From Desulfuromonas sp. (lineage in GTDB: Bacteria; Desulfobacterota; Desulfuromonadia; Desulfuromonadales; Geothermobacteraceae), in NCBI GenBank assembly GCA_002868905.1, contig PKUA01000077.1, positions 1 to 48,797 of the forward strand: a DNA stretch of 48,797 nt, given 5' to 3'. A program made the translations under genes and the position numbers. The notes below the pieces were generated by a model that saw only the letters and a list, made by a program, of their open reading frames with translations, was not told the origin of the DNA and made no database searches. Position 1 is the first letter of the stretch. Each line of letters opens with the position of its first letter. Of this stretch, positions 25,494 to 48,002 are shown piece by piece.

Positions 25494-25559
25494 AGATTTC
25501 TTCGCTTCAATCAACCCGGCAGTGGAGTGTTGGTGCTCGGCCGGGATTCAGGTGAATTC

Positions 25560-28277: not shown

Positions 28278-28329
28278 AAAACCCCCTATCCTCAATCCGT
28301 TGAGTCGGGCAGATGAATATTGCCGGCCA

Positions 28330-28992: not shown

Positions 28993-29056
28993 CGGCAATA
29001 ACAGTCAATTCGTCGAGATGATTCTAAATTCAGTAAAAAATATAAGGTTTTAGCCA

Positions 29057-30325: not shown

Positions 30326-30360
30326 CTGTCCTATAGAATAAATATCGAAAGCCTGATTCG

Positions 30361-30410
30361 GTAGGGGCGCTGCTTGCCGCACCCCAGAGCGGAGCGAGCT
30401 CCGCCCCTGC
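30361..30410. repeat. Imperfect palindromic GTAGGGGCG repeat element
   Basis: gtaggggcg (30361-30369) is answered by cgcccctgc (30402-30410), one mismatch from its complement, and encloses a perfect smaller palindrome ggagc-ga-gctcc (30391-30402). It fills the gap between the convergent trhP and glycosyltransferase genes. It is similar in style to, but different in sequence from, the GTAGAGACG units at 139-262, and could act as a transcription stop despite lacking a T-run. Confidence 0.55.
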
Positions 30411-30420
30411 AGTTCAATGT

Positions 30421-31443: not shown

Positions 31444-32261
31444 GCCAGGTCTCCAAAGGAGATCAGCCGGATCGCGCACCGGCTGATTGTTGCTTTCACT
31501 TCAGTTGACAGCAGGGCTTCAAGTTCCAGCTGGCGCTGGCGGCCGCCAAACCCTTCCCCCGCGGGATAGCCGGGATGCACCATCAGTTCCCATCTCCCCG
31601 GTGGGATGTGTTCGAGCAGATCGCAAAGTCTCTCGGTATCAAGGTTGGTCAGGTTTGGCATCCCCCACAGTCCGTCAGGCATGGCGATGTCGGAGGCCCC
31701 CGCAATCAATGCTGGCGTCTCGTGAGCGAGGCTTCGATAGAGGCGCATTTCCTTGCCCAATACATCGTGGGGATCGGACTCCGCCGGTTCGGCCGGAAGC
31801 GAACGGCGAACAGCGGGGATCCCCTCCTCCCTTGCCAGGTCGAGAACGATTCTCAGCATGGCCGGGAAGAGGTGGAAATGCTGGTGGCTGTCGAGATGAT
31901 CAGGATCAATTCCAAATTCCCTTGCCCGGTTGACTTGTGTCCGAAGTTCATCTCGAATCCCCTGGCCGTCGACCGCGCTCCTTTGCAGGGCGTCCCGCAA
32001 ACCTTGTTTTCCCGGAAATTGGCCTCTGGTGTCGGTGAGCCCGGGGATGGTTCCGGTCAGGCTCTGCCCTTCGGAGAGGTTAAGGTGGATACCGACCGGC
32101 AGTCCGCTGGTGATGGCTCGCTCTGCCGCCTGGCGGGCCGAGACTCCGTTGACGATCAGTGAGGCGCTGCAGACAATTCCCCTGGCGTGGGCTTCGAAAA
32201 TGCCCCGGTCCCTCTCCGGGTGGATTCCGAGGTCGTCAGCGTTAACGATCAACAATGTCAT
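31431..32261 (-). CDS. YdjC/ChbG-family carbohydrate deacetylase
   Basis: 276 aa. Begins LLIVNADDLG with the metal-binding Asp pair, then GIHLNLSEGQSL and DSHQHFHLFP, which supply the His ligands, and the C-terminal WELMVHPGYP. Members such as ChbG remove an acetyl group from N-acetylated sugars. Together with the glycosyltransferase downstream this hints at sugar or glycan processing. The ATG at 32261 starts exactly at the family's first strand; the longer frame reaching 32318 overlaps the phosphatase gene and is rejected. Confidence 0.88.
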   Translation of the reverse strand: MTLLIVNADDLGIHPERDRGIFEAHARGIVCSASLIVNGVSARQAAERAITSGLPVGIHLNLSEGQSLTGTIPGLTDTRGQFPGKQGLRDALQRSAVDGQGIRDELRTQVNRAREFGIDPDHLDSHQHFHLFPAMLRIVLDLAREEGIPAVRRSLPAEPAESDPHDVLGKEMRLYRSLAHETPALIAGASDIAMPDGLWGMPNLTNLDTERLCDLLEHIPPGRWELMVHPGYPAGEGFGGRQRQLELEALLSTEVKATISRCAIRLISFGDLACAS

Positions 32262-32271
32262 GGTCGTTGGT

Positions 32272-32931
32272 TTATTCCGGGTCGGGGTAATGCCAGAATG
32301 TGCGTTTTTCAACATCACAGCCGGTCAGGTAGCGGCCGTAAACCGCACCGGTGTCAATAGCAATACGATGCGGTGTCAGGGTGGGTTTATCGACCGGAGA
32401 ATGACCGTGAACCACCACTTTGCCGAAGTCGATGTCCCGGTTGAGAAAGTCCTCCCGAATCCAAAGCATGTCCTGCTCCTGCTGCTGAGCCAACTCGACG
32501 TCCACCTTCAAACCGGCATGCACGAAAATATGGTCCTCGGTTTCGTGCAGCAGGGGGAGATTGCGGATAAAGTCGATATGGTGCTGGGGTATCCGGACCT
32601 TCTCCTCCTCCTGGTAACTCTTCAGGGTCATGGTGCCGCCATTGATCATGAAGGTGAGGCGGTCGATATCGTCAAGGAAGTCGAGAAACATCCGCTCGTG
32701 GTTCCCCATCAGGTATATGGTCCGGGGGAAGTCGCGCTTCAGGTCGAGGAGGTATTCCACTACGCCGCTGCTCTCCGGTCCCCGGTCGATGTAATCCCCA
32801 AGAAAGACAAGTTGATCGTCAGGTTTTGGATCGATGCGGTGCAGCAGCCCGATTAACTCTTTAAGGCAGCCGTGAATGTCGCCGATGGCAATCAGTCGTG
32901 ACGGCTGCCCGTTATTTTGCGTTTCGGTCAT
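32272..32931 (-). CDS. PPP-family serine/threonine or dinucleoside-polyphosphate phosphatase
   Basis: 219 aa. The three metallophosphoesterase motifs are complete: GDIHGC, GDYIDRGPES and MGNHE, with later His in VHAG and VVHGHS. Bacterial members of this group hydrolyse phosphoproteins or Ap4A. The gene lies 10 bases upstream of the YdjC-family gene, first in a three-gene unit; divergent from the Nudix gene across a region with a long AT-rich hairpin. Confidence 0.9.
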   Translation of the reverse strand: MTETQNNGQPSRLIAIGDIHGCLKELIGLLHRIDPKPDDQLVFLGDYIDRGPESSGVVEYLLDLKRDFPRTIYLMGNHERMFLDFLDDIDRLTFMINGGTMTLKSYQEEEKVRIPQHHIDFIRNLPLLHETEDHIFVHAGLKVDVELAQQQEQDMLWIREDFLNRDIDFGKVVVHGHSPVDKPTLTPHRIAIDTGAVYGRYLTGCDVEKRTFWHYPDPE

Positions 32932-32985
32932 GACGTTTCATTCCCGGTATCAACTGAAGAATATGAGCATGAGTCTGAATCGTAA

Positions 32986-33033
32986 TTCATTATTCTATTT
33001 TGCCGAACAAATGGCAAATAGGAATAATGAATG
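32986..33033. promoter_or_regulatory. Long AT-rich inverted repeat in a divergent promoter region
   Basis: Arms of 20 bases, attcattattctattttgcc (32986-33005) and ggcaaataggaataatgaat (33014-33033), pair almost fully with single-base bulges across an eight-base loop. They lie between the divergent starts at 32931 and 33103. There is no adjacent T-run, so an operator, a palindromic insertion or a cruciform-forming site fits better than a terminator. Confidence 0.6.
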
Positions 33034-33102
33034 GTTGAAATAGGGTAGGCCAAACGCTTCCGGATTGAGTTTTTTCTCCCGTCTCTGCTAAGCTCCATTC
33101 CC

Positions 33103-33639
33103 ATGAAGACACTTTATGCAGGTCGGATATTGACGCTCAATCTCGAAGAGCACTCCCTGCCGGATGGGAGGAAGGGAACCTATGAAATTGTCCGCCATCC
33201 GGGTGGTGCGGCGGTTTTGCCGATCTTGGCCGATGGACGGGTGTTACTGATCCGCCAATTCCGTCCGGCAGCGGGTGGCTGGGTTGTTGAGCTGCCAGCA
33301 GGTCGACTGGAGGAGGGGGAGGAACCTGCCGCGACGGCCGGTCGGGAGTTGGAGGAGGAGACAGGGTATCGGGCCGGCGGCCTTGAACCCCTCGGTTCGG
33401 TGCTCAGTTCCGTCGGGTTCTGTGATGAGCGAATACATCTGTTCGTGGCTCGGGACCTGACGGCCGGTGAGTGCCGTCGTGAGCCGGATGAGGCGATCGA
33501 GCTATTCGCCCTCCCGTTGCAAGAGGCCCTGGCGCAGATCGCCGCTGGAGCGATTGACGATGCCAAAACCCAACTGGCGTTGTTGCGTTATGCCGGTTTG
33601 TCGGCAGCGCAATCTGCCGGGGTGACCCCTTTCCTCTAA
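33103..33639 (+). CDS. Nudix hydrolase, ADP-ribose pyrophosphatase type
   Basis: 178 aa. The Nudix box is intact: G-RLEEGEEPAATAGRELEEE-TGY (about residues 67-89), preceded by RQFRPAAGGWVVELPAG, the adenosine-binding strand typical of ADP-ribose pyrophosphatases, with VGFCDERIHLF after. It probably cleaves ADP-ribose or related nucleoside diphosphate sugars. It lies 17 bases upstream of nudC, so both Nudix genes are probably co-transcribed for nucleotide clean-up. Confidence 0.9.
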   Translation: MKTLYAGRILTLNLEEHSLPDGRKGTYEIVRHPGGAAVLPILADGRVLLIRQFRPAAGGWVVELPAGRLEEGEEPAATAGRELEEETGYRAGGLEPLGSVLSSVGFCDERIHLFVARDLTAGECRREPDEAIELFALPLQEALAQIAAGAIDDAKTQLALLRYAGLSAAQSAGVTPFL

Positions 33640-33656
33640 ATGTGTAGGACTCTGCC

Positions 33657-34514
33657 ATGATGCAACTCCCCGAGAGTTTCGACCATCCGGTTGATCTCCC
33701 TTTCAATCATGCCGCGTTGCAGCGATATTTCGTGTTGGAGTCGCCCGACCATGATCCGGGGGGAAGCGGGTATCGCCTGCTGTTGCAGGGGGGGCGATTG
33801 CTCCTCTTGGCAGGAAACGGCAGCTTGCCGGAGGATGGAATCTCCGTTGCGGATACCAGCCCGCCACTCTATCTCGGCCGGTGGGATGGTCTCCCGCTAC
33901 GGGTTTCGACCCTCGCGAAGGAGGCGGATCTGCCGGAATCGCTGATTGCTGTCGACCTGACGGCCCAGCATCCGATGTTGTCGATTGAACTGCTCTCCAT
34001 CGGCGCCCTCGCCCGGCACATTCTCCACTGGGAGAAGAACAGCCGTTACTGCAGCCGCTGCGGCGGTGCCACAACAAGAGTTTTGCGGGAGTGGGGCAAA
34101 AGATGCGATGCCTGTGGCGCGCTGCACTACCCGCATCTCCACCCCTGTGTCATCGTATTGGTCCGGCGCCCGGGAGAGGTGTTGCTAACCAGAAAAGCGG
34201 AGTGGGCGCCGGGACGCTACAGCCTCGTCGCGGGCTTCCTCGATTTCGGCGAGTGCCTGGAGGAAGGGGTGAGGCGCGAGGTATTCGAGGAAACCGGGGT
34301 CGAGATTGACAATATCCGCTATGTCGGCAGTCAGGCCTGGCCGTTCCCGAGCCAGGTCATGTGCGGCTTCGTGGCCGATTATGTCAGTGGGGAGGTACGG
34401 GTCGAGGAAGACGAACTGGAGGATGCCCGTTGGTTTTCTCTGGATGACCTGCCCAAACTCCCCCCCCAACGCTCCATCGCACGGTTCATTCTCGATCGCT
34501 ACCTGGCTGGTTGA
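33657..34514 (+). CDS. nudC: NAD(H) pyrophosphatase / NAD-RNA decapping hydrolase NudC
   Basis: 285 aa. N-terminal domain, a four-cysteine zinc ribbon (CSRCGG and CDACGA, residues about 131-149), then the Nudix box with GFLDFGECLEEGVRREVFEE. The NudC hallmark SQAWPFPSQVM follows, where the family usually has SQPWPFPxS. It hydrolyses NADH and decaps NAD-RNA. Its 3' end overlaps the convergent DUF2141 gene by 16 bases. Confidence 0.93.
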   Translation: MMQLPESFDHPVDLPFNHAALQRYFVLESPDHDPGGSGYRLLLQGGRLLLLAGNGSLPEDGISVADTSPPLYLGRWDGLPLRVSTLAKEADLPESLIAVDLTAQHPMLSIELLSIGALARHILHWEKNSRYCSRCGGATTRVLREWGKRCDACGALHYPHLHPCVIVLVRRPGEVLLTRKAEWAPGRYSLVAGFLDFGECLEEGVRREVFEETGVEIDNIRYVGSQAWPFPSQVMCGFVADYVSGEVRVEEDELEDARWFSLDDLPKLPPQRSIARFILDRYLAG

Positions 34515-35056
34515 CCGAGCTGAGACTTTCTTTTCCCAAACGTGTCGTAACTTAGGGCAATTGCCAAGGGATGCAGTGATCTTACCAGCAGGATTCTCAC
34601 CTCCTGGAATTCCGGTGGACCAAACGTCACATCCGCCTTGCCGGAAAAACCGAAACCTTCGGTCGGTAGTCCCAGCAGGTTGCGGTCCATGATGCCGTTG
34701 TTGTTCTCATCGTGCAGGACACTGATCCCGTACCGTCCGTAAGGGAGTGGCTCGGTTGACAATGTCGCTTTGCCTTCGCTGATCGGGACTTCCAGGTTCG
34801 CGACGGCTCGATCCGTGTTGTCGGGAAAACCGTCGCTTCCGGCAAAGATGGAAACCAGTGCGGTCCCCTCGTCGCTTCTAAAACCGAAAATTTCAAATTG
34901 CAGTATCCCTTCGCCTTCGGGAAGGGTGTGTGGTTGCAAAGAAGGCGATGAATGGGCGCAGGCGGCCAGGAAGGAAACCGGCAACAGAATGAGAACGGTG
35001 CGCCAGATCGTGATGTTGCAATGGGTTTTAATTTTTGTCCATATTGAATTCAGCAT
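34499..35056 (-). CDS. DUF2141-family lipoprotein
   Basis: 185 aa. Long basic N-region, hydrophobic core and lipobox (FLAAC) place the lipid at Cys33. The mature DUF2141 domain has the family's VSIFAGSDGFPD, LPYGRYGISVLHDENNNGIMD and GLPTEGFGFS signature; the D-E-N-N-N-G turn could bind calcium. Exported, role unknown. The ATG at 35056 lacks a clear ribosome site and a shorter start is possible. Tail-to-tail overlap of 16 bases with nudC. Confidence 0.85.
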   Translation of the reverse strand: MLNSIWTKIKTHCNITIWRTVLILLPVSFLAACAHSSPSLQPHTLPEGEGILQFEIFGFRSDEGTALVSIFAGSDGFPDNTDRAVANLEVPISEGKATLSTEPLPYGRYGISVLHDENNNGIMDRNLLGLPTEGFGFSGKADVTFGPPEFQEVRILLVRSLHPLAIALSYDTFGKRKSQLGQPAR

Positions 35057-35167
35057 ATCGGCCTGATAGATTTGTAATCGTTCTGCCCAGTCCTGCCACC
35101 TTTAGGAAATTTGATAACAGGGGGGATGTTCCGCGTCGGTTGCCCCTGCCTGAAAAGAGGTTGTACC

Positions 35168-35377
35168 ATGCAAAAAATGATACTGCTGATTCCGCTGTTG
35201 TTGTTGGGTTGTACCATGCGGATGGCTGCGTTTGCGCCTCATCCCCCCGACAACGACGCTCATCGAAACCTCGCGGAAAATAAAGCCTGCTTCTCATGCC
35301 ACGATCCCGCCGCACTTAATAATCACCAGGCGAACGATAATTGCCTGCGTTGCCACCGTGTTGTCAAGGGGAGATGA
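35168..35377 (+). CDS. Small dihaem c-type cytochrome lipoprotein
   Basis: 69 aa. Signal MQKMILLIPLLLLGC with a lipobox cysteine at 15, then two CXXCH motifs, CFSCH and CLRCH, and additional His residues (HPPDNDAH, NNHQAND) that can serve as axial ligands. The mature protein would be one of the smallest dihaem cytochromes, anchored in a membrane and able to pass electrons to larger multihaem partners. AGAGG precedes the ATG. The next lipoprotein gene starts two bases after its stop, so they are co-translated. Confidence 0.8.
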   Translation: MQKMILLIPLLLLGCTMRMAAFAPHPPDNDAHRNLAENKACFSCHDPAALNNHQANDNCLRCHRVVKGR

Positions 35378-35378
35378 A

Positions 35379-35948
35379 ATGAAAACGAGATTGAGTATTG
35401 TATTGACGGCCCTTCTGTTAACGGCGTGCGGTCCGATAATCGGGGCCGGAATGGTAGCGGGTAACGGCGTCAAGGATTTCAAGGTCGTCTCCGGCGATCT
35501 GCAGGATTTGCAGATCGGCAGCCGCCTGGTGCTGCTCAGCCCATTCGCCAAGACGTCCCAGTCGTTTTATATCTGTCGCGGTGAGGACGCCTCCGAGTTT
35601 GCCGATGCATTTAACGCAGCAGGCCTGTTTGTCGCCGAGGTCGCCTTCGGCGAACCTGAAGGACGGAATCTGCGCGAGGTTGAAAAATTACAGGCACTGT
35701 CGCCGGCGGACCTGCAGAGTCAATTGGCGTTGTCTGCCGCGCCCCAGGTTCTGCTGACAGGAACCATACTGAAGCGCGAAACAGTGGCGGCTCCGGTTCA
35801 GGGTGTGCTGATGAAGGTTGCCTATCGTCTCGAATTCCTGCGGCTTGATGACGGGATGAAGACCGTGGTCGAGGTCGCTGTTCAGGACCACTTCCAGGAT
35901 TGTATTGCCACTGCGGTCAAGGAATTGCTGCGGCGGAAGGGCATTTGA
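35379..35948 (+). CDS. Predicted lipoprotein, unknown function
   Basis: 189 aa. Signal MKTRLSIVLTALLLTACGP with lipobox LTAC. The mature part reads as a mixed alpha/beta domain: DLQIGSRLVLLSPFAKTS, FYICRGEDASEFADAFNAAG, VLLTGTILKRE and a C-terminal FQDCIATAVKELLRR helix. This resembles lipoproteins that assemble at the outer membrane (a CsgG-like TolB-N type layout), but I do not claim the family. The ATG at 35379 follows AAGGGGAG. The open frame to 35232 overlaps the dihaem gene in another frame and is not real. Confidence 0.8.
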   Translation: MKTRLSIVLTALLLTACGPIIGAGMVAGNGVKDFKVVSGDLQDLQIGSRLVLLSPFAKTSQSFYICRGEDASEFADAFNAAGLFVAEVAFGEPEGRNLREVEKLQALSPADLQSQLALSAAPQVLLTGTILKRETVAAPVQGVLMKVAYRLEFLRLDDGMKTVVEVAVQDHFQDCIATAVKELLRRKGI

Positions 35949-36812: not shown

Positions 36813-37024
36813 AATGCCATCTCTGCTGTTGCCATCACCGCAGCGGCAAGCCCGGCCTTGCCGCCGACCCTTTCTTCAGCAGTAGCATTAACGGAGACTG
36901 TCCTCTCGAGTCGATTTCACCAGTAGTCGATTCCGGCATCACAGGCGGGGCTCCAAGCGACGATCTTGACGGCAATATCCGTTGCGACGGATGGCCCGAC
37001 ATGGTTTCGGTCGGGGCCGGCTGA
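36813..37024 (+). pseudogene. Remnant of the C-terminal end of a beta-helix protein
   Basis: Open frame of about 70 codons ending TGA at 37022-37024, with no start codon. It reads GKPGLAADPFFSSSING, then SPVVDSG, then PSDDLDGNIR and PDMVSVGAG. This is the same closing pattern as the beta-helix ends of the large downstream gene (DPLFVDA, SPVIDQ, PADDLDGNLRP, DDMGAYEY). In-frame stops interrupt it upstream (36728, 36783, 36810), so only the tail survives. It lies 0.5 kb upstream of, and on the same strand as, its intact relative. Confidence 0.7.
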
Positions 37025-37553: not shown

Positions 37554-40500
37554 ATGAAAAAGATATTAATCAATATAATTCTAATAAGTTGCCTGACATG
37601 TTGTTTGGCCGCAGCGGCAGAGCGGGTTCATAATTTCGAGTGCCAGGGGTGCCACCGGAGCGGGGTCTCTCTGGTGACCATGACCAGCAACCTCTGCCTC
37701 GACTGTCATGACATCTCCGGTGGCCCCATAACCATGCTTGACGGGAGTTCGGTTTCCCCTTCAGGCCGCTTCAATATAGGGGATGCAAGTAATCTTTACG
37801 GAAATAATTCGCTTATGGCGAGGCAGACTTCGCACAACTGGATCGCATGTGACTGCAATGACTCTGCGGGAGCCGCTGCCCCGGTCAGCCGTTACTTTTA
37901 CGGTCGCATCGCTTATTCGCGCGGTTACGTTGCCTGCAGTCGTTGCCATAACCCGCATGGCTTTAAAGAGACCGACCCGACCCTGCTGAAACTCCCCCCG
38001 ACGGTGACCAACCCGGAGGACGGCGAACCTTATGGGCCGGAGGATCTCTGTCTCGACTGTCATCGTGAATGGAATGTGACCGGTAACCATGGGCTCGAAA
38101 CACATCCACTGGTTGACGATTACGCTGCCGTCGCCGCCACGCGTGCGGGTTGGCTGAAGCCTTTACCGGAGAGCGGCGGTGATGGCAACGAAGGGGATAT
38201 TCGCCTGCTTGACGGTGGGGTGACCTGCACCAGCTGCCACGGGATTCATCACACCGACTCAGATTCCACCACCTGCGACGATCTCGGATCGAGCATGAAC
38301 AACGCTGATGGTCGCATCCTGCGGGCTGACGGTCCGGAAAACGAATGTGTCGACAACTCCCTCTGCCAGGCATGCCATACCTACGAAAAGCATGGCAGTG
38401 ACGACGGTAGTCCGATCGGTTGCATGGTCTGCCACGGTAGTCACGAACATGATTCATCTGGTCTGCCGAATTACTTCATGCTGAAAAAGCAGGTCACGCT
38501 GGTGACGCCGAAATCTGGAGTCGAAGAGACCGTCAACCTGAATTACACGAGTTATCCGCCGCCGGATAACTTCAATCTGGTCTGCCTCAGTTGTCACAAC
38601 ATGCCGGGTGCACACGATGTCGGTGCATCCTGCTCGGGTTGTCATTCTCACACCGACGGTTTCGGCCATGGCAGTGGTGGCAGCGGTGTGGGGTGCGTCG
38701 AATGCCACGGGCACGATCTCGGAACTCAATATGATCCGGATATGATGCTCCCTTATTCCGCCGGAGCGCAGGCGAGCCAGGGCCGAGGGACCGCCCAGAG
38801 CCACTCGACCCATACCGAGGTCGACAGCGATGATCAGCGCGGACCCGGCATCTATTGCGACAGTTGTCACGACACCGCCAATTTCCCTTATTTCAAGTCG
38901 GGGACAGACGGCAACGGCGACGGCAAGTACGATCTGGCCGAAACCGACGTCTGCGATACGTGTCACTCCCCGGGTGGCAGCTATGACGGTTTGGACGATG
39001 CGGCGGTTGGCGCCAAGGTCAACTGGGAGACTGGAATTTACGCCGGAGACGGCAGCTTGCAAAGCGGCAAGGAGAAGTGGTGCGCGACCTGTCACGACGA
39101 GTCGCCTTCGGTCGTAGAGAGCATTTCGGCACCGAACGTGATCGGTGCCGAGGAAGGTTCCTACATCTACGGTTCCGGCTGGGGTTACTACAAGACCGGA
39201 CATGGTCTCCCGGCAGGTGAAACATACGCCTCCAAGGGCGGCATCGAGTCTGTTTCCGGGCGGCCGATCGAATGCGGCGAATGTCATGATCTTTCGACGG
39301 CCCACGTCGACGGTCTCGCCAGGACCTTCGATGACGTTAACAGCAGCGATACCGACCCGAGCATGTATCGCCAGGGCTACCGGCTGAAACTGGTTGACGG
39401 CGAAGAGCCGATGCAGATCCCCTGGAAACCGGGCTCCCAGCCGAATGAACCGGACACCTACAAGTTATGCGCAGAATGTCATAACACCCGGCCGTTTACA
39501 GGCGGCGCCAAGGACGAGACCAACTTTATCTCGACATCTTCAGACGGTACCCGCAACAGGCATTACACCCACATGATCATGAATAGCGCCTGGTGGTCGC
39601 CGGATTATGAAGTCCTTGGTGGGGTCAATACGAGCCGGCCCATTTGCGTCACCTGTCATAACGTGCACGGTTCGACCCAGCTTGCCATGGTCAGAGACGG
39701 CAAGCTCATTGGCCAGGAGCCGGGCCTGAAGGTGTGGTATTACAATGACGACACAACCCTGGTCAATGAAGCTAACTCGGATCCGCCTGACCCTGAAGAC
39801 ACCCCCCTTGCCGCTAGTGATGGCTCAGTAAGGCGAGCCTGGACCTCCAGGTATCTCTGCAACCATTGTCACAGTAATAACAATACGATCAAAGAGCCCT
39901 GGAGCCCCGTCCAGGAAACCTCGGTGGCACCCACCCTTGAGTGGAGCGGTGAGAGCGGTTTCACGGCAGACGGCGCCAACCCTGACAGTGGCCCTTCGGG
40001 AAGTTCATATGCCTTCCGGGTCAAATACGCCGATCTGAACAACGAAGGCCCAGTCGCTCCCGGCTATATCAACCTCCTGATCGATGCCGACAACGACGGC
40101 GTGGCAGACGCAACCTATTCGCTGGAGGGGATCGAAGATGGTGATGTCAATTATCTGAATGGAAAGATCTATTCCAAGACCCTGACCCTGACAAAAACCG
40201 GGAGCAGTTCGATCGGTTATAAATTTGCAGCCCGGGATGAAACGGGCCTCGATGCAACCGGCCAGCCGACAAACTGGAGCACAGTCACGTTGTTGAACAA
40301 CGCCCCGGTTCTCGCCTGGACCGATGAGGAGGACTACGAAAGTGACGGTGTCAACCCGGATCGAGGGGCCAACGGTTCAGATTTCACCTTCCGGGTTCTG
40401 TACTCGGATGCGGACGGCGAATGTCCGGATACCGACGGTGTTGATGTCGTTGTCGATGGAACAAGCTATGAACTGACCCAGAATGACGGTGCATCCTGCG

Positions 40501-41423
40501 CAACGGGGCGGATTTATTACCAGCCAGTTACCCTGGGCACCACCGGTGACCTCGATTACCATTTCCTCGCCAGAGATGCCGCGGGTACAGCAGCTACAGG
40601 CGAGCCGACGTCTCCCCATACGGTCACGGTCCTCGGCACCTCCAACAATCCCCCGTCACTCGCATGGGCGCCCGATACCTGCCGGGCGGAAGGTGTGAAG
40701 CCGGCCTACGGGGCGATAGGCGCCGACTTCGAGTTCGTTGTCCAATACACAGACCCTGACGGTGGTTGCCCCGCTGCGGCCGATGCGGTCCAGGTTACAA
40801 TCGACGGCAGCACGAGCAATATGGTTGAAGTCGACTCCGGCGACAACGATTGCTCCGATGGCAAATTGTACACCTACACGACGGCTTTAAGCAGTGTGGG
40901 GACCTTCTACTACAACTTCTCGGCGACCGATGACGGTGGAGCCGCGGCGTTTGGTGAGCCGACGGCTGTATCGACCTACCAGGTTGAGGTTGTCGATGCT
41001 TACAAAGTCAGACCTGCCGGTGGCAGTGGGTGGTACACAACGATTCAGGCCGGTGTGGACGCAGCAATTGACCCAAGTCCTGTCAAGGAAGTCCTGGTCT
41101 ATGAGGGGGACTACAACGAGCGACTCAATCTCTGGACCGGGACGTATTCCAACATTGAAGTACGCTCGGTCTGTGGTCCGGATGCAACCACCATGAGATA
41201 TGACGGCAATGAGGTTGTCTTCCTGCAGAACGTATCGGGTGTCGTCATTGACGGTTTCGATATCACCAGTGTCACCGCCGATGGTTCCCTGACCGGAGTC
41301 CGCTCAAACTCCGGCAGTGTAACGATCAATGACTGCAGGATTCACGGCCACCACAATACCGGGCGCGGCGGAGCCATCGTGGCCGGTACCTCCACATCGA
41401 TTTTCACGGTCACCAATTCATAA
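37554..41423 (+). CDS. 17-haem c-type cytochrome with Ig-like modules, N-terminal part of an interrupted megaprotein
   Basis: 1289 aa before the TAA at 41421. Signal peptide 1-22 (MKKILINIILISCLTCCLAA). Residues 30-773 hold 17 CXXCH haem sites, from CQGCH to CNHCH, with many spare His for axial ligation. Three copies of an Ig-like module follow (about 39930-41000; pattern W-x(4-7)-Y-x(2)-DG-x(2)-P...F-x-FRV-x-Y), then KVRPAGGSGWYTTIQ opens a right-handed beta-helix at residue about 1151. The chain stops inside that helix at TVTNS, where sister repeats continue with V or T. The exported protein probably acts at the cell surface in electron transfer. The ATG at 37554 is chosen for the signal peptide; its ribosome site is weak, and an in-frame GTG lies at 37515. 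Confidence 0.88.
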   Translation: MKKILINIILISCLTCCLAAAAERVHNFECQGCHRSGVSLVTMTSNLCLDCHDISGGPITMLDGSSVSPSGRFNIGDASNLYGNNSLMARQTSHNWIACDCNDSAGAAAPVSRYFYGRIAYSRGYVACSRCHNPHGFKETDPTLLKLPPTVTNPEDGEPYGPEDLCLDCHREWNVTGNHGLETHPLVDDYAAVAATRAGWLKPLPESGGDGNEGDIRLLDGGVTCTSCHGIHHTDSDSTTCDDLGSSMNNADGRILRADGPENECVDNSLCQACHTYEKHGSDDGSPIGCMVCHGSHEHDSSGLPNYFMLKKQVTLVTPKSGVEETVNLNYTSYPPPDNFNLVCLSCHNMPGAHDVGASCSGCHSHTDGFGHGSGGSGVGCVECHGHDLGTQYDPDMMLPYSAGAQASQGRGTAQSHSTHTEVDSDDQRGPGIYCDSCHDTANFPYFKSGTDGNGDGKYDLAETDVCDTCHSPGGSYDGLDDAAVGAKVNWETGIYAGDGSLQSGKEKWCATCHDESPSVVESISAPNVIGAEEGSYIYGSGWGYYKTGHGLPAGETYASKGGIESVSGRPIECGECHDLSTAHVDGLARTFDDVNSSDTDPSMYRQGYRLKLVDGEEPMQIPWKPGSQPNEPDTYKLCAECHNTRPFTGGAKDETNFISTSSDGTRNRHYTHMIMNSAWWSPDYEVLGGVNTSRPICVTCHNVHGSTQLAMVRDGKLIGQEPGLKVWYYNDDTTLVNEANSDPPDPEDTPLAASDGSVRRAWTSRYLCNHCHSNNNTIKEPWSPVQETSVAPTLEWSGESGFTADGANPDSGPSGSSYAFRVKYADLNNEGPVAPGYINLLIDADNDGVADATYSLEGIEDGDVNYLNGKIYSKTLTLTKTGSSSIGYKFAARDETGLDATGQPTNWSTVTLLNNAPVLAWTDEEDYESDGVNPDRGANGSDFTFRVLYSDADGECPDTDGVDVVVDGTSYELTQNDGASCATGRIYYQPVTLGTTGDLDYHFLARDAAGTAATGEPTSPHTVTVLGTSNNPPSLAWAPDTCRAEGVKPAYGAIGADFEFVVQYTDPDGGCPAAADAVQVTIDGSTSNMVEVDSGDNDCSDGKLYTYTTALSSVGTFYYNFSATDDGGAAAFGEPTAVSTYQVEVVDAYKVRPAGGSGWYTTIQAGVDAAIDPSPVKEVLVYEGDYNERLNLWTGTYSNIEVRSVCGPDATTMRYDGNEVVFLQNVSGVVIDGFDITSVTADGSLTGVRSNSGSVTINDCRIHGHHNTGRGGAIVAGTSTSIFTVTNS

Positions 41424-44400
41424 CTCTACGAGAACCGGGCCGATGATGACGGCGGCGCTGTTAACCTGAACGATGGTAACGGGCATTCCTTTACCAACAC
41501 TGTCATCAGGGACAACCAGGCCACCGACAGTGGCGGTGCTGTTTGGGCCCAGAACGCGTCCGCAACCTTTACTGATGTGACCATCAAGGACAATACGGCG
41601 GGATCCGGCGGAGCCATCTACTCTCTCAATGCAGATGCCGACTTTGTCCGCTGTACGGTCACTGGCAACGTGGCCACCAGTGGTAACGGCGGGTTCTCAG
41701 TGCTGGCGAACGGTGGAGAAAACTTCTCTCTGGAAAACTGCATCGTGGCAGACAACCAGGCTCTCGCAGGCGGCGTCTCTTATGTCAACGGCGGAGAGTT
41801 CATCGCGATCAATTCGACCTTTGCCAACAACCGGGCGACCGGCGGCGAGGGCGGGGTCCTCTGGCACCAGAACGCAACCGCCATATTCCGTAATTCGATC
41901 CTCTGGGGAAACAACGCCAGCGACGAGGGGCACAACGCCTATATCAACGGCGGGACCGTAACCATCGGGGATTCGATCCTGGCCAGCGGCGGCGACGGTG
42001 TGCTCGACAATGCGCCGTACTTTACGACAAGCGGTGCCGCACACACCCTGACGATCGGAGCTGAAACCACGGAAAACGACCCGATGTTCGTTGATGCTGC
42101 TGGCGGCGATTACCATATTCAGGTTGTTTCACCGGCTGTGGACAACGGTAGCGCCACAGATGCACCCGCCGAAGACATCGACGGCGACAGCAGGCCCCAG
42201 GGGATTGCCGATGACATCGGGGCTGATGAATACCTGTCCGGTTTGAACAGCGGGCCGGTACTCTCCTGGACAGGAGAAACGGGATACGAGAACGACGGGG
42301 CAGACCCTGACAGTGGTGACGAAGCCTCGACAGCCTTTGTGCTCCGGGTGAAATACACGGATGACGACAACGACCCGCCCCTGCTGATTCAGGTCTGGAT
42401 CGATGAAGACGACAACGGCGCATACGGCTTCGATGAGAAGTTTGATATGGCCGAGGTCGATGCGGGTGATACGGATTATACGACGGCCGGCGACGGGAAG
42501 ATTTATCGCCTTGACAGGGTTATCGATTTCGCAGGTGACGGCACTCTGAATTCCAGATTCTACGCCCGGGATGTTGCTGTGGAGGCGATCGGCGACCCGA
42601 CAGAAGACCAATCGGTCAACCTGACGAACAGCCTTCCGCTTCTGTCATGGACGGGAGAGGCAGAGTATGCCAGTGACGGTGTTTACCCTGACTCCGGCCA
42701 GGGCGGCGTTGCTTTCACCTTTCGGGCGACTTATACCGATGGTGACAATGTCGCCCCAGATCCGATCCAGGTCTGGGTCGACACCGATAACAGCGGCTCC
42801 TATGACGTCCATGAGAAGTTTGACCTGATCTGGGTGGACGACGGGGGGCAAGACTTTAGCGACGGCGAGACGTATACCCGGACCCTGCAAATCCCCTATG
42901 CCGGCAATGGCCTGGATCCCGTCAATATGACGTACCGTTTCTACGCCACGGACGGCGCCGCTGAGGCGACAGGTGATCCTGTTGCGGATACCCCGTTGAC
43001 AATCGATATCGAGCCATCTGAGAACTCCGCCCCGTCCCTCTCCTGGTCAGTGGCCGAATGTCTCGATAACGGGGTGAGACCTCCGGTCGGAGACGTCGAG
43101 GCTGCTTTCGAATTCAAGGTCCTCTATACGGATCTGGACGGCACCGGACCGGAGGGGAACGGGATCTACCGGAGCGAGTGCGCTGTCGACATCCTGCTCA
43201 TGCTTGACAAGGATAACAACGGCACGTACGACTCGGATGAAAAGTACGTTCTTACCGAAGCTGATCCGGGAGACGTGGATTGCACCGACGGCAAACTCTA
43301 TGAAACAACCCTGGTCCTGGAAGGAGCGGTCGAGGGTGAGCTGGGTTACAGCTTCTATGCCACGGACAGCTTCGCAGCCGCAACGGGAGAGCCGACAGTT
43401 GACAGCACGGTTATGGTGTATGCGAATGCGCTCAAGGTTAGGCCATCCGGAGGAGCCGGCTGGCTGACAACAATCCAGGCTGCTGAAGACAGCTCTTTCG
43501 ATGGCTCCGCTATTCTGGTCTACCCGAATGATGATTTCACGGCAGCGATCTATACCGAAAACATCGAAGCGCGCACCACCAACCTGACCATACAAGCGGT
43601 TTGTGGACCCGACCTGACCATCGTCGATGGCGGCGGCAGTGGTGTCGGCTTCATGTTGAGAGCTGACAACCAGGTTCTGGACGGTTTTGGCGTCACCAAC
43701 GCTGGGGACGGGCTCTATATCAATCCCTCCCCGGAGAACATAACGATAAAGAACAACAAGATATACGGGAACACCCAGTACGGCATCAATGTGAATCCCG
43801 GGTTCAATATACATATCGATAATAATGAAATTTACCGTAACGACAGCTCGGGAATTCGCACAAACGGCTCAACCGTTGAAATTACAGACTGTGACATCCA
43901 CCATAACTACGCGGCTTGGGGTGGAGGAGTCATGTTTAATGGCAATGTCCATACCATAACCGATTCCGTAATCAGGGATAATTCGGGCGTTGACGGTTCA
44001 GGGATTGTCTTCAATGTTGTTGGTGAAGGGACCACGGTTACAAACAGTGTGATCAGCAATAATCACGGTATTGGTCGTGGTGGCGGTATCTATAATGCCG
44101 GCGGCAGCCAGTTGACTCTTGATAAATGTACGATTACCGGCAATCAGACAACATCCGCCGGAGGTGCGATCTATTCTCAGAGCGGTTGGAGTACATCTGC
44201 CCTTGTCAGGATGAGTAATTCCATCGCTGCCGGAAACAGTGCGGCCGGCAAAGGGGGTTTTGTATATCATCATTCGGGCCTGGGTGAATATTACAACAAT
44301 ACCTTTGCCGATAATCATTCTTCGAGTTATGGCGGTGTTTTTGGTGCCTGTACTATCCCGGAACAGCTTGAGGTCAGGAACTCCGTATTCCGGGGGAATA

Positions 44401-47400
44401 CAGCCGTCGACGGAACGATCGGTTCCAGGTATATGTGCAATGGTAACGGTCCGTTAATCCATGTCACAGATTCTTATTTCTCAACAGACCCGGCCCTTTC
44501 AAACTTTTCCTGGGGCAGCGTAACATCTGAAAACAATATCGACTGTTGTGAAGACCAAGACCCCGCAGACCCTGACAAACCTGCAGGTTTTATAGAGTTT
44601 AACGTTGGAGCTCCCGGGTTTTCCGGTGATGGTAGCTATCACATCGATTCTGCTTCGCCACTCATTGACAGGGGCAACGCGGCCTATGCTCCGGAAGATG
44701 ATATCGACGAGAATGGACGAATTGTCGGACTCGGTGGTGACGGTTCTCCGGACATGGGTGCAGATGAATATGAAGCTCCTGCTGACAGCACGACTGCCGG
44801 CTATGTGACAGCCTATGCCAGTGATCCCGCCAACAATACCTCGATGACTGTCACCATGCCCTACCTGGGTGATGCTGATGAGGACAACTCCTGTACGGTT
44901 GATTACAAACTGAGTTCAGCTCACACTTCGGTTTGGACCAATTGGGTCACCGATGCAGACTGTGGAACAAGTCCATACACCACAACAATGACCGGTCTTG
45001 TTGCTGATGAAAAATATGATGTGCGTGCAATCTTTGCTGACCCGGATGGTGTGGATGGTAAGGCCCGGCGAATCGTCTCCTCTGTTGACCTGAATTGGTA
45101 TGTTGACCTGACCGCCCCAACCAGGTCGACCGCCGAGAGTGCAGGAACTGTAACCGTGACCGCAACGCTCTCAAGGGTCAGCGATCAGGATGTAACCGTT
45201 CCGTTTACCGTCAGTGGCACGGCAACCGCAGAAGGTGATGACCCCATCAACTACGATCATGACCTGTCCGACGGCAGCATTATCGTCCCCGCAGGGAGTT
45301 TGACCGGAGAAACAAGCTTTACACTGAATGATGATGCCCTGGATGAAGCAAGTGAAACCATTGTCATCACCATGGGCGCCCCTGTGAACGCCCTTGCAGA
45401 CAGGTACGATACCCAGACGATCACCATCACAGATAATGATTCTCCGGTCTTGGTTGATTTTACCAGTGCTTCTGAGACCACACTGGCTGAAAACGGGAGC
45501 GTTACGATTACGGCTCAACTCTCAGAAATAAGCGGCCTGGATGTAGAAATACCCTTCACCGTTAACGTTAACAGCACAGCCCTGGGTGAGGGCGTGGACT
45601 ACTCCATTACTGAAAGCCCGGTCACCATTGCTGCAGGTTACAACACAACCAATATAACAATAACGGTTAATGCTGACAGCAGTCATGAAGGTAATGAAAC
45701 CGTCATTGTCGACATGGGCACACCGGTTAATGCCACTCAGGGCACGACCACCACGCACACGACAACCATTACCGATGATGACCCCGAACCGAGTGTGACC
45801 TTTGCCAATGCATCTCAGTCCGTATCTGAGAATGCAGGAGCTGTAACAATGACCGCTGAACTGAGCGCAAGCAGTGGTTTGGAAGTGACCGTTCCGTTTT
45901 CCATCAGTGGTACTGCAACCTCAGGTGGCACCGATCACGACCTTGTAGACGGAAACATAATCATTCCTGTCGGTCAGACGAGTGGGACAACGACTTTCAC
46001 AGTGACGGATGATGCCATCGTTGAAAATGACGAGACGGTGATTGTCACGATGGGGTCACCGATCAACGCGACCGTCGGTGCGGAGAGCGTCCATACCGTC
46101 ACCATCTTCGATAATGACACCGTGACCTTTGCAGAAGCATCACAGTCGGTGAGTGAAAGTGGTGCCGCCACGGTTACGGTTCAACTCAACGCGGCAAGTT
46201 CCAGTGATGTGATCGTGCCCTTTAGCATCAGCGGCTCAAGTACGGCAACCGGCGGTGGCGCAGATTACTCCATCACCGCCAGCCCGGTTACGATCCCTGC
46301 AGGCAGTACCTCGGCAGATATAACGGTCACCATCACCGATGATGCTGACGCCGAGAGCTCTGAGACGGTGATTGTCGATATGGGCACGCCGACCAATGCG
46401 AGCCAGGGAGCCATCACCACACACATCTTGACGATTACCGATAATGATTCGGGTGGTAGCAACACGGCTCCGGTTCTTGCCACGGTAAACGATAACTGCC
46501 TCGTTGATGGTGCCCGCCCGAGAGCCGGAAAAACGGGCGAAAGTTTTGAGTTCATCGTCGAATACACAGATTATGACAACCAATGCCCGACATCAGGCAG
46601 CAGCGCTATCCAGGTCTGGATCGATCTGGACGGTGACGGCTACGAGGCGGGAGAGACGTTCAGCCTGAACGAGGTTTCCGCAGCAGACACTGATTGCAAT
46701 GACGGCAAGCTGTACAGTATCAACCAGACCCTGAGCACTTCCGGCTCGATCAACTATCGCTTCTATGCCTCGGATGGCATTGATGAAGCCAGCGGCGAAC
46801 CGACTGCGGACAACAGTGTCGAGATATATTCGACGGCAACAGTGGTGCGCCCATCCGGAAGCAGCGAGGCTTACGACTACACGTCGGTCCTCTCGGCGAT
46901 CAACGCTGTCAGCGGCAATATCCTGGTCTATCCGAACGACGACTTCACGGCCGTCACCTACACCGAGAACGTGGCCATCTACAACAAGGATGACCGAACG
47001 GTTGTCTCGGTCTGCGGCGCCGAAAGCACGATCATTTCGAGCGCCAGCACTGGCCATACCGTCACCGTACAGGACAGCTCCAATTTCGTCATGGACGGCT
47101 TCTCGATCACCGGGGCGACCAACAGCGGTGCTTCTGCCTCTGGGTTCTATATCAACCGGGTCGATATGACGACCGCCACGTTCCGCAACAGCAAGGTGTA
47201 TGGCAACTACTACGGCGTCTACATCAACGATGCTGACGACACCCCGCTTCAGCTCCAGAATCTCGAGATCTACAACAACAGCGGTCGTGGAATTTACGCG
47301 GTCAACGCGGATGACGATTTCAACCTGATCGATAGCACGATCCACTCGCACAACACGGCCCTTGCCGGTGCCGGGATAAGAATCAACGATGGAGCGGCAG

Positions 47401-48002
47401 TCACCATCACCGGATCGGTGATACGGGATAACATTTCCTCCGGAGAGGGCGGTGCGATCTTTGCCAACAAGGGTTCTCTGACGGTCACCAACACGATCTT
47501 CGCCGACAACCAGGGCTCTAACGGCGGTGTGATCCGTTCGAGCAACGGGCCGACCATCAATCTCGTCAACAATACCTTTGCTGACAACACGGCGACCAAC
47601 CAGGGTGGCGTTCTCTATATCTGCCAGCCCGGATCACATACAGTAAGGAACAGCATTTTCTGGGGCAACAGCGCGGCCTCCTCCGGAGACATCGCCTACA
47701 AGGCCTGCAGCGGTTTTGCCACCGGATTCATGACCGTGACCGACTCCGACATAACAACGTCGGGCAGCAGTTTCGGCAACGGCACGCCAATCACAAGCAA
47801 CAACATCGACCCGGCCCAGGATCCTCTCTTCGTCGACGCAACCAATGACAACTACCATATTCAGTCCGGCTCGCCGGTGATTGACCAGGCCAATTCAACC
47901 TATGCACCGGCTGATGATCTCGATGGCAATCTCCGCCCGGTCGACGGTGACGGCGCTGGCGGTGCTGCCGATGACATGGGGGCCTATGAATACCAACCTT
48001 GA
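41424..48002 (+). CDS. C-terminal part of the interrupted megaprotein: beta-helices, Ig-like modules and four Calx-beta domains
   Basis: Same frame as the upstream cytochrome, 2192 codons after the TAA. A GTG at 41577 could start a 2141-aa protein, but no ribosome site or signal peptide precedes it, so it is not an independent gene. Order: rest of beta-helix 1 (to about 42240, ending DIGADEYLSG), three Ig-like modules (42247-43420), beta-helix 2 (KVRPSGGAGWLTTIQ, 43430-44775), an FN3-like stretch (44781-45110), four Calx-beta domains (45110-46455, each closing TITDND-like), a seventh Ig-like module (46465-46830) and beta-helix 3 (46845-48000, ending DDMGAYEYQP). Several modules carry EF-hand loops (DEDDNGAYGFDE, DKDNNGTYDSDE). 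Segments near 43741-43860 are AT-richer than the rest. Confidence 0.85.
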   Translation, partial: LYENRADDDGGAVNLNDGNGHSFTNTVIRDNQATDSGGAVWAQNASATFTDVTIKDNTAGSGGAIYSLNADADFVRCTVTGNVATSGNGGFSVLANGGENFSLENCIVADNQALAGGVSYVNGGEFIAINSTFANNRATGGEGGVLWHQNATAIFRNSILWGNNASDEGHNAYINGGTVTIGDSILASGGDGVLDNAPYFTTSGAAHTLTIGAETTENDPMFVDAAGGDYHIQVVSPAVDNGSATDAPAEDIDGDSRPQGIADDIGADEYLSGLNSGPVLSWTGETGYENDGADPDSGDEASTAFVLRVKYTDDDNDPPLLIQVWIDEDDNGAYGFDEKFDMAEVDAGDTDYTTAGDGKIYRLDRVIDFAGDGTLNSRFYARDVAVEAIGDPTEDQSVNLTNSLPLLSWTGEAEYASDGVYPDSGQGGVAFTFRATYTDGDNVAPDPIQVWVDTDNSGSYDVHEKFDLIWVDDGGQDFSDGETYTRTLQIPYAGNGLDPVNMTYRFYATDGAAEATGDPVADTPLTIDIEPSENSAPSLSWSVAECLDNGVRPPVGDVEAAFEFKVLYTDLDGTGPEGNGIYRSECAVDILLMLDKDNNGTYDSDEKYVLTEADPGDVDCTDGKLYETTLVLEGAVEGELGYSFYATDSFAAATGEPTVDSTVMVYANALKVRPSGGAGWLTTIQAAEDSSFDGSAILVYPNDDFTAAIYTENIEARTTNLTIQAVCGPDLTIVDGGGSGVGFMLRADNQVLDGFGVTNAGDGLYINPSPENITIKNNKIYGNTQYGINVNPGFNIHIDNNEIYRNDSSGIRTNGSTVEITDCDIHHNYAAWGGGVMFNGNVHTITDSVIRDNSGVDGSGIVFNVVGEGTTVTNSVISNNHGIGRGGGIYNAGGSQLTLDKCTITGNQTTSAGGAIYSQSGWSTSALVRMSNSIAAGNSAAGKGGFVYHHSGLGEYYNNTFADNHSSSYGGVFGACTIPEQLEVRNSVFRGNTAVDGTIGSRYMCNGNGPLIHVTDSYFSTDPALSNFSWGSVTSENNIDCCEDQDPADPDKPAGFIEFNVGAPGFSGDGSYHIDSASPLIDRGNAAYAPEDDIDENGRIVGLGGDGSPDMGADEYEAPADSTTAGYVTAYASDPANNTSMTVTMPYLGDADEDNSCTVDYKLSSAHTSVWTNWVTDADCGTSPYTTTMTGLVADEKYDVRAIFADPDGVDGKARRIVSSVDLNWYVDLTAPTRSTAESAGTVTVTATLSRVSDQDVTVPFTVSGTATAEGDDPINYDHDLSDGSIIVPAGSLTGETSFTLNDDALDEASETIVITMGAPVNALADRYDTQTITITDNDSPVLVDFTSASETTLAENGSVTITAQLSEISGLDVEIPFTVNVNSTALGEGVDYSITESPVTIAAGYNTTNITITVNADSSHEGNETVIVDMGTPVNATQGTTTTHTTTITDDDPEPSVTFANASQSVSENAGAVTMTAELSASSGLEVTVPFSISGTATSGGTDHDLVDGNIIIPVGQTSGTTTFTVTDDAIVENDETVIVTMGSPINATVGAESVHTVTIFDNDTVTFAEASQSVSESGAATVTVQLNAASSSDVIVPFSISGSSTATGGGADYSITASPVTIPAGSTSADITVTITDDADAESSETVIVDMGTPTNASQGAITTHILTITDNDSGGSNTAPVLATVNDNCLVDGARPRAGKTGESFEFIVEYTDYDNQCPTSGSSAIQVWIDLDGDGYEAGETFSLNEVSAADTDCNDGKLYSINQTLSTSGSINYRFYASDGIDEASGEPTADNSVEIYSTATVVRPSGSSEAYDYTSVLSAINAVSGNILVYPNDDFTAVTYTENVAIYNKDDRTVVSVCGAESTIISSASTGHTVTVQDSSNFVMDGFSITGATNSGASASGFYINRVDMTTATFRNSKVYGNYYGVYINDADDTPLQLQNLEIYNNSGRGIYAVNADDDFNLIDSTIHSHNTALAGAGIRINDGAAVTITGSVIRDNISSGEGGAIFANKGSLTVTNTIFADNQGSNGGVIRSSNGPTINLVNNTFADNTATNQGGVLYICQPGSHTVRNSIFWGNSAASSGDIAYKACSGFATGFMTVTDSDITTSGSSFGNGTPITSNNIDPAQDPLFVDATNDNYHIQSGSPVIDQANSTYAPADDLDGNLRPVDGDGAGGAADDMGAYEYQP
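45110..46455 (+). repeat. Four tandem Calx-beta domain repeats
   Basis: Four protein-level repeats of about 110 residues. Each has a start like VTFANASQSVSENAG, a VPFSISGTAT-like strand, an (I)IPAG-x(4)-T-like turn, a DDA-x(3)-ETVIV-like strand and an NDxP or NDS linker. Calx-beta domains bind calcium between adjacent units and stiffen extracellular adhesins. The copies differ in codons, so they are old duplications. Confidence 0.85.

What the first reader, a model, noticed from the sequence alone, without database searches (positions are those of the whole stretch)
37554..48002. Megaprotein joining a 17-haem cytochrome to beta-helices, EF-hand Ig-like modules and Calx-beta repeats
One reading frame would give about 3480 residues: Sec signal, 17 CXXCH motifs in the first 773 residues, seven copies of one Ig-like module, three right-handed beta-helices each introduced by an x-VRP-x-G motif, an FN3-like stretch and four Calx-beta domains. 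Haem-rich domains are normally compact electron carriers, and beta-helices and Calx-beta domains are adhesin scaffolds. Joining them suggests a surface-anchored, calcium-stiffened conductive adhesin, possibly for contact with minerals, electrodes or partner cells. The role is inference; the domains are visible in the translation.
Basis: partly seen in the sequence, partly recalled or inferred. Interest (0 to 1): 0.85.

Follow-up and report, generated by a model that had tools for sequence, protein, structure and literature searches.

The report
Modular 17-haem cytochrome with beta-helix tail
A metal-breathing-type bacterium carries a gene for an exported electron-carrying protein whose far end is built from surface-binding folds; the same end piece is found on different front pieces in other bacteria, but in this genome the gene is cut short by a stop signal.

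Summary
The fusion is real, but the frame is not open. From 37554 to 48002 one frame encodes a signal peptide, 17 CXXCH motifs, seven Ig-like modules, three beta-helices and four Calx-beta domains, interrupted by one in-frame TAA at 41421-41423 inside the first helix. As written, this genome makes at most a 1,289-residue protein. Relatives with one unbroken frame show that haem head and helix tail belong together. The head has two parts: a 10-haem cap (residues ~25-400) and a 7-haem module (~430-775). The 7-haem module, Ig modules and a helix-type tail recur together in 7 genomes (8 proteins), two genomes outside the window's class. The caps differ: in G076 and G040 the cap resembles other cytochromes of the same genome (AU p 8e-67 against one cap clade). 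Best reading: a portable haem-plus-binding cassette joined to local cytochrome caps, for electron transfer at a polysaccharide, mineral or cell surface. Secretion, haem loading and binding are inferred; in most relatives the helix is assigned by likeness to the window's, not by Pfam. Multihaem plus beta-helix fusions are already in print for ANME archaea, so this is a new variant. Among the frames compared, Calx-beta and the extra helix units occur only in the window.

The parts
37554..37619 (+). signal peptide (residues 1-22), judged by eye; exact start codon not settled (GTG at 37515 also in frame)
   Evidence: sequence; relatives have different signal peptides before the conserved mature start
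37626..38753 (+). cap module A, residues ~25-400, 10 CXXCH (30-381)
38841..39878 (+). module B, residues ~430-775, 7 CXXCH (435-769); start of the portable cassette
39930..40985 (+). Ig-like modules 1-3 (residues 793-1144)
   Evidence: own profile; GEVED-type match in relatives, above cut-off in one G101 frame only
41007..41021 (+). VRPxG motif 1 (residues 1152-1156), directly before beta-helix 1
   Evidence: same motif in G076, G040, G101 (two) and G295, VRTTG in G442, none found by pattern in the G084 frame
41004..42083 (+). beta-helix 1, interrupted by the stop
41421..41423 (+). in-frame TAA stop
42084..42236 (+). choice-of-anchor-Q segment 1; the G040 and G101 proteins end at this point
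42255..43421 (+). Ig-like modules 4-6, each with a 12-residue EF-hand-like loop
43434..44597 (+). beta-helix 2 (model built on 4 sequences; 10-residue pLDDT means 81-96 over model residues 131-380)
44598..44774 (+). choice-of-anchor-Q segment 2 (modelled at low confidence)
44781..45083 (+). FN3-like module, similar to modules of related cytochrome frames
   Evidence: not called by Pfam at E 0.1
45072..46424 (+). four Calx-beta domains; the FN3-like plus Calx block has GC3 0.52 against 0.60-0.72 elsewhere in the gene
46470..46829 (+). Ig-like module 7
46842..47825 (+). beta-helix 3, beginning with VRPxG motif 3
47826..47999 (+). choice-of-anchor-Q segment 3; the frame ends here with no anchor after it
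36848..37021 (+). relic of a choice-of-anchor-Q end upstream of the gene (probable decayed neighbour of the same kind)
   Evidence: 46% identity over 41 residues to the gene's own last segment, E 8.8e-8 in a small local set; NCBIfam 17.0 bits, below the 25 cut-off

Best explanation
Shown by sequence: the gene encodes a signal-peptide-bearing protein with 17 c-type haem motifs, made of a 10-haem cap (A) and a cassette of a 7-haem module (B), Ig-like modules and a right-handed beta-helix. In this genome further Ig/helix units and four Calx-beta domains follow behind a stop codon. Inferred: the protein is exported by Sec and then across the outer membrane, probably by type II secretion. Cap A takes electrons from the organism's own extracellular cytochromes, since in two genomes it resembles them. 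Module B passes electrons to the far end. The Ig stalk, perhaps stiffened by calcium, and the beta-helix hold that end against a polysaccharide matrix, mineral or partner cell. The cassette has spread between lineages and been joined to local caps. The window copy has been extended by further units and then, recently or through a sequence error, cut at residue 1290.
For: All 34 motif Cys and 17 motif His are invariant in three proteins, with 19 of the 22 other head His (18 in five proteins), enough in number for two His on every haem. Cytochrome_C7 and MtrC/MtrF II/IV models above cut-off. Unbroken fusions in four other genomes and contig-cut ones in two. Similarity switches near residue 400-440: the G076 protein is 73-87% like its own genome's paralogue before that and 15-47% after, but 35-55% and then 53-76% like G040's protein. 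AU rejects one cap clade of the three capped fusion proteins (p 8e-67) and, for module B, one clade of the G076 heads (p 7e-4). Module B + Ig + helix recurs behind another cap in two genomes outside the class. Cap A begins the protein with exactly 69 CX2-3CH in G016, whose single contig has 3,958,620 bases, as reported for 'D. soudanensis' WTL with a 69-motif protein predicted extracellular (PMC4914508, passages read). Own genome has GspD above cut-off, ResB and 21 Cytochrome_C7 matches besides the window's frame. The beta-helix 2 model matches polysaccharide-acting helices, AlgE6 Z 34.2.
Against: The in-frame TAA means the complete protein is not encoded as one frame here. No anchor, no binding assay, no expression data. 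The head could not be modelled (pLDDT 24.8). Pfam Beta_helix is not called in five of the six relatives' genomes. The helix fold is shared by enzymes, spikes and transport proteins, so it does not prove binding. 'Cap matches its own genome' is shown for G076 and G040 only: in the window's genome no second cap A was found, and its cap is at best 49-51% identical to other caps. The AU groups were chosen. Window, G076 and G040 as one clade for module B has 95/90 but only 60/58.
Confidence: 0.5

Rival explanations
1. In this genome the gene is already broken, and only a truncated 17-haem, three-Ig protein (1,289 residues, helix unfinished), or nothing, is made. The tail is dispensable or is being lost.
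For: In-frame TAA; the first starts after it (41577 GTG, 41629 ATG) lie inside the helix, with no export signal seen by eye; relic of a second such gene end upstream; another family member in G084 has two in-frame TAA in its tail without frameshift.
Against: Over 2,192 codons behind the stop there is no second stop; neutral divergence since the stop is under about 1.8% at 95%, so the break is recent or a sequence error. The G076 and G040 proteins have a sense codon at this place, read off by eye.
Confidence: 0.35
2. The beta-helix is an enzyme (epimerase or lyase type) acting on matrix polysaccharide, and the haem head merely accompanies it.
For: Best fold matches include mannuronan epimerases, alginate lyases and the matrix lyase RbmB.
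Against: Listed matches have 11-17% identity; the AlgE DPHE and PL6 NEEG motifs (recalled) are absent from the frame; no catalytic site was found, and none was searched for beyond these two motifs.
Confidence: 0.1
3. The fusion is an assembly artefact joining separate genes.
For: Draft genome, gene near the end of a contig.
Against: Same module B-Ig-tail order in single frames in six other genomes; no exact repeat of 20 nt or more in the gene. For the extra units 42255-47999 no other frame compared shows the same order, so a misjoin there is only unlikely, not excluded.
Confidence: 0.03
4. The TAA is read through or recoded, so the full protein of about 3,482 residues is made.
For: The rest of the frame stays open for 2,192 codons; the three tail stops found (G000 one, G084 two) are all in-frame TAA.
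Against: I looked for no readthrough signal; relatives have an ordinary sense codon; three cases are too few, and a head match in G006 has a TGA instead.
Confidence: 0.05
5. The cap likeness within genomes comes from homogenisation among paralogues rather than from moving cassettes.
For: G076 caps form one clade at 100/100.
Against: Caps within G076 differ at silent sites as much as old duplicates do (dS 1.2-1.6, dN/dS 0.10-0.20), so recent conversion is unlikely. Other front ends before the same cassette in f50 and G084 need module joining anyway.
Confidence: 0.3

Closest known systems
ANME MHC type C (PMC9012536, passages read)
   Same: Very large multihaem cytochrome fused to a pectin-lyase-like (beta-helix) domain; partner recognition proposed there
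   Different: Archaeal; helix at the N-terminus; no Ig-like or Calx-beta modules are named for it in the passages read; sequence not compared here
Giant extracellular cytochromes of Desulfuromonas: the 69-motif DSOUD_0664 (PMC4914508, passages read) and the 86-motif protein of D. acetexigens (PMC12133095, passages read)
   Different: The G016 protein has haems to within about 10 residues of its end and no such cassette; the D. acetexigens protein was not compared
OetF with fibronectin domains (PMC10553843, passages read)
   Same: Bacterial extracellular-electron-transfer cytochrome carrying adhesion-type domains
   Different: Different domains; sequence not compared
OmcA/MtrC family
   Same: MtrC/MtrF II/IV Pfam model hits residues 358-517 (40.8 bits, cut-off 30)
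   Different: 17 haem motifs and a long non-haem tail

Membership tests
multihaem c-type cytochromes | several CXXCH motifs and a family model above cut-off | tested here: met
   17 motifs; Cytochrome_C7 46.9 against 24.8 bits
multihaem c-type cytochromes | enough conserved further His for a second axial ligand on each haem | tested here: met
   19 non-motif His invariant in three proteins, 18 in five, for 17 haems; actual pairing not tested
multihaem c-type cytochromes | covalent haem in the mature protein | not testable with these tools
   needs haem stain or mass spectrometry
OmcA/MtrC | domain II/IV model | tested here: met
   40.8 bits, cut-off 30
OmcA/MtrC | decahaem protein | tested here: not met
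   17 motifs
OmcA/MtrC | lipoprotein anchor | tested here: inconclusive
   LISC at residues 10-13 looks like a lipobox by eye; the G076 and G040 proteins show none by eye; no predictor run
cytochrome nanowires OmcS/OmcE/OmcZ | sequence or fold relation to the solved filaments | tested here: inconclusive
   no PDB sequence match at E 0.01 for residues 1-1289; fold not testable, head model failed
[quoted passage not shown]
   helices are C-terminal
autotransporter adhesins | C-terminal translocator barrel | tested here: not met
   no such Pfam or NCBIfam match at E 0.1; the frame ends in the Q segment
choice-of-anchor-Q proteins | Q domain | tested here: met
   61 bits, cut-off 25, three stretches
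choice-of-anchor-Q proteins | an anchor after the domain | tested here: not met
   nothing follows; no LPXTG; no CTERM model hit at E 0.1
Calx-beta domains | family model and relation to NCX1 | tested here: met
   92.3 bits, four stretches; NCX1 E 1.4e-12
right-handed beta-helix proteins | helix model and predicted fold | tested here: met
   window: Beta_helix 118.6 bits, model and fold matches. Relatives: called by Pfam in G084 only

The most novel reading that the evidence does not exclude
Bacteria of this phylum share a portable 'tip' cassette (seven haems, Ig stalk, beta-helix) that is joined to lineage-specific multihaem caps. It is one of several interchangeable tails (beta-propellers, LamG, HYDIN-type Ig, Rha78A-type Ig, beta-helix) carried on one kind of cap, in one genome as a tandem array: a plug-in system in which the tail chooses the surface that the cell wires itself to.
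Probability: 0.4. Interest if true: 0.8.

Novelty: new variant of a known kind. Interest (0 to 1): 0.6.

Why it matters
How extracellular cytochromes find and hold their targets is largely unknown. A cassette that pairs seven haems with a defined binding-type stalk, kept together across classes while the front end changes, points to the part that may meet the target and makes it testable by removing or exchanging tails. It also warns that giant 'single' cytochromes can be mosaics whose parts have separate histories, so naming them by best match misleads.

Tried and rejected
Head structure prediction from three sequences gave pLDDT 24.8 and was dropped. Sequence search of residues 1-1289 against solved structures found nothing at E 0.01. 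Autotransporter, LPXTG and sortase-type anchors were considered; no support. Repeat-driven misassembly was considered; no exact repeat of 20 nt or more, three families of short diverged repeats. Recent gene conversion among caps was considered; silent sites are too diverged. A general pattern of stops was considered: 2 of the 31 match rows and 2 match rows (one with a TGA, one with two TAA) carry stops, too few to claim a mechanism. The module-B tree had one very long row (G084 L031:8152); one search was built without it. Frames that repeat the same DNA were dropped before the trees: L029:17312 (part of the L002 gene) and L002:4461 (same as L029:11835). The search for a second cap A in the own genome was repeated with the cap alone and with the G001 cap: only the window's. 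The six-frame Cytochrome_C7 search of the own genome did not list the window's own frame, although Pfam calls it there, so such searches can miss. Paper searches (listings seen, passages of some papers read) turned up no bacterial haem plus beta-helix fusion; they cover only the held open-access library. PMC11475568 (abstract and passages) reports modularity in multihaem pathways in general; PMC12977616 (passages) reports high mutation rates of outer-surface cytochromes.
Full report
What is there. The + frame from 37554 to 48002 reads as 3,482 positions, one of them an in-frame TAA at 41421-41423, that is 1,289 + 2,192 residues. Before the stop lie a signal peptide, 17 CXXCH motifs (residues 30-773), Ig-like modules 1-3, a VRPxG motif and the first 140 residues or so of a beta-helix. 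Behind it lie the rest of that helix, Ig 4-6, helix 2, an FN3-like module, four Calx-beta domains, Ig 7 and helix 3. Each helix ends in a choice-of-anchor-Q segment. Seventeen CXXCH is far above chance (shuffled mean 0.10). The window is one whole contig of a draft genome of 84 contigs, 99.98% complete, so what lies beyond 48797 is unknown.

The stop. Read off by eye, the G076 and G040 proteins carry a sense codon there. Behind it 2,192 codons stay open. With 512 of 19,728 possible single changes leading to a stop, the absence of a second one limits neutral divergence since the stop to about 1.8% at 95%. So the break is recent or a sequence error; I cannot tell which. As the sequence stands, the product is at most 1,289 residues from the ATG at 37554.

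The fusion is real. The cytochrome part (782 aa query) matches 52 of 147 related genomes, own included. Unbroken frames with module B, Ig modules and a helix/Q tail stand in G040 (1,612 aa), G084 (1,809 aa, 10 haem motifs, four Ig), G442 (1,530 aa) and G295 (1,526 aa). Frames cut by contig ends stand in G076 (L002, ends inside the helix) and in two contigs of G101 (begin inside module B). With the window this is 8 proteins in 7 genomes. The query of module B plus Ig 1-3 matched 9 of 136 genomes of the order and 14 of 395 drawn from the phylum; the matches outside these seven genomes cover only part of the query. The tail query (Ig 4-6, helix 2) matched 16 of 147; its four matches better than E 1e-100 outside the own genome (G101 two, G040, G076) all lie in haem frames. 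G040 and G101 end just after Q segment 1, so the window's units from 42255 on look like an extension. The FN3-like plus Calx block differs in third-position GC (0.52 against 0.60-0.72), which suggests separate acquisition.

A caution on the helix in relatives. Pfam's Beta_helix is called in the window (118.6 bits) and in G084 (72.7 bits), but not in the G040, G076, G442, G295 and G101 proteins even at E 1. There the helix is inferred from 41-43% identity to the window's Ig 4-6 plus helix 2 in G040, G101 and G076, from a profile built on the window's helices (G442 1.7e-29, G295 2.9e-33), and from choice_anch_Q above cut-off in G040 (34.6 bits), G442 (42.1), G295 (38.2) and the G101 frames (35.9, 28.2). 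VRPxG stands before the helix in the window, G076, G040, both G101 frames and G295; G442 has VRTTG, and none was found by pattern in G084.

The head is a mosaic. Sliding identity shows that in residues 21-400 the G076 protein resembles its own genome's paralogue (73-87%) and not G040's protein (35-55%). From about residue 440 on this turns round (15-47% to the paralogue against 53-76% to G040). G040's protein shows the same switch against its own paralogue (61-79%, then 25-31%). Trees agree: caps of G076 form one clade (100/100). One clade of the three capped fusion proteins is rejected for the cap (AU p 8e-67). For module B a clade of the five G076 heads is rejected (p 7e-4), and the window, G076, G040, G084 and G143 group at 100/99; window, G076 and G040 alone have 95/90 but 60/58. 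The groups were named, which weakens the p values. Silent sites in the G076 caps are near saturation (dS 1.2-1.6, dN/dS 0.10-0.20), so the joins look old and the caps are under purifying selection. In f50 (G442, G295) no cap A is detected before the same cassette; in G084 an FN3-like stretch and other haems stand there; in G143 module B stands in a 795-residue frame without a tail. In the window's own genome no second cap A was found, so whether its cap is 'local' cannot be tested.

Tails in general. In G076 six heads stand in tandem over 35 kb of one contig, and a seventh on another. Pfam tails of the six are SBBP propeller with TSP3 (two), LamG with SBBP and TSP3, HYDIN-type Ig with propeller, TSP3 and LamG, Rha78A-type Ig, and the Ig/helix type. 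Pairwise the heads keep 48-71% identity. Two pairs of tails are also close (57% over 524 and 59% over 900 residues), others share shorter pieces, and the Ig/helix tail has no match at E 1e-3 to the other five.

What the parts suggest. All 34 motif Cys and 17 motif His are invariant in three proteins, with 19 further invariant His, enough in number for bis-His haems. Among the eight cassette proteins, haem 5 of module B is CX2CH or CX4CH, the last CX2CH or CX3CH, G084 has lost one His, and the first two lie beyond the contig ends in G101. Cap A also begins many giant cytochromes of this order, with up to 62 CXXCH. D. acetexigens expresses high-molecular-weight cytochromes of up to 86 motifs in electron-transfer growth (PMC12133095 passages); I did not compare their sequences. 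The helix 2 model matches AlgE epimerases (Z 34.2), phage tailspikes, NosD and the matrix lyase RbmB, without the AlgE DPHE motif. Nine of 18 Ig modules carry an EF-hand-like loop against 0.32 expected, three of them in the window. The genome has a GspD above cut-off and ResB. From this I infer an exported cytochrome held at a surface or matrix by its tail. Export route, calcium, binding and electron path are not shown.

Known or new. ANME MHC type C already joins a pectin-lyase-like domain to many haems (PMC9012536, passages read), and OetF carries fibronectin domains (PMC10553843, passages read). So the kind is known. I found no description (searches, open-access library only) of the bacterial C-terminal version, of the Ig/helix cassette shared across classes with changing caps, or of the Calx-beta extension.

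Noticed in passing
L087:11868-11870 and 12558-12560 (G084): A related cytochrome (11 haem motifs, propeller, Ig, LamG-type tail) has two in-frame TAA stops in its tail with no frameshift, as in the window.
   Followed up: partly
window 36848-37021: Relic of a choice-of-anchor-Q end upstream of the gene; probable remains of a second gene of this kind.
   Followed up: partly
L033:1-6141:-, L040:10091-15208:+, L046:9680-14500:+: Directly after the giant 57-58 CXXCH genes of G001, G016 and G049 stands a second frame with an FN3-like stretch and 10-17 haem motifs (two of the three cut by the stretch fetched): perhaps a conserved pair.
   Followed up: no
L036:6111-17636:- (G062): A 3,842-residue frame with no CXXCH in its first 239 residues and 24 after that; the front might be an N-terminal beta-helix as in ANME MHC-C. 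Not tested.
   Followed up: no
L028 and L029 (G076 C150): Six tandem cytochrome heads with different tails, preceded by a PKD-bearing 12-haem frame open at its start.
   Followed up: partly
window 27246-35948: The upstream neighbours tested are ordinary genes (LysM, YbgF-type, U32 peptidase, glycosyltransferase, YdjC, phosphoesterase, NUDIX, NAD diphosphatase, DUF2141; one frame without a match); no cytochrome among them. Of the frames before 27246 only topoisomerase I (23196-25514) was tested.
   Followed up: partly
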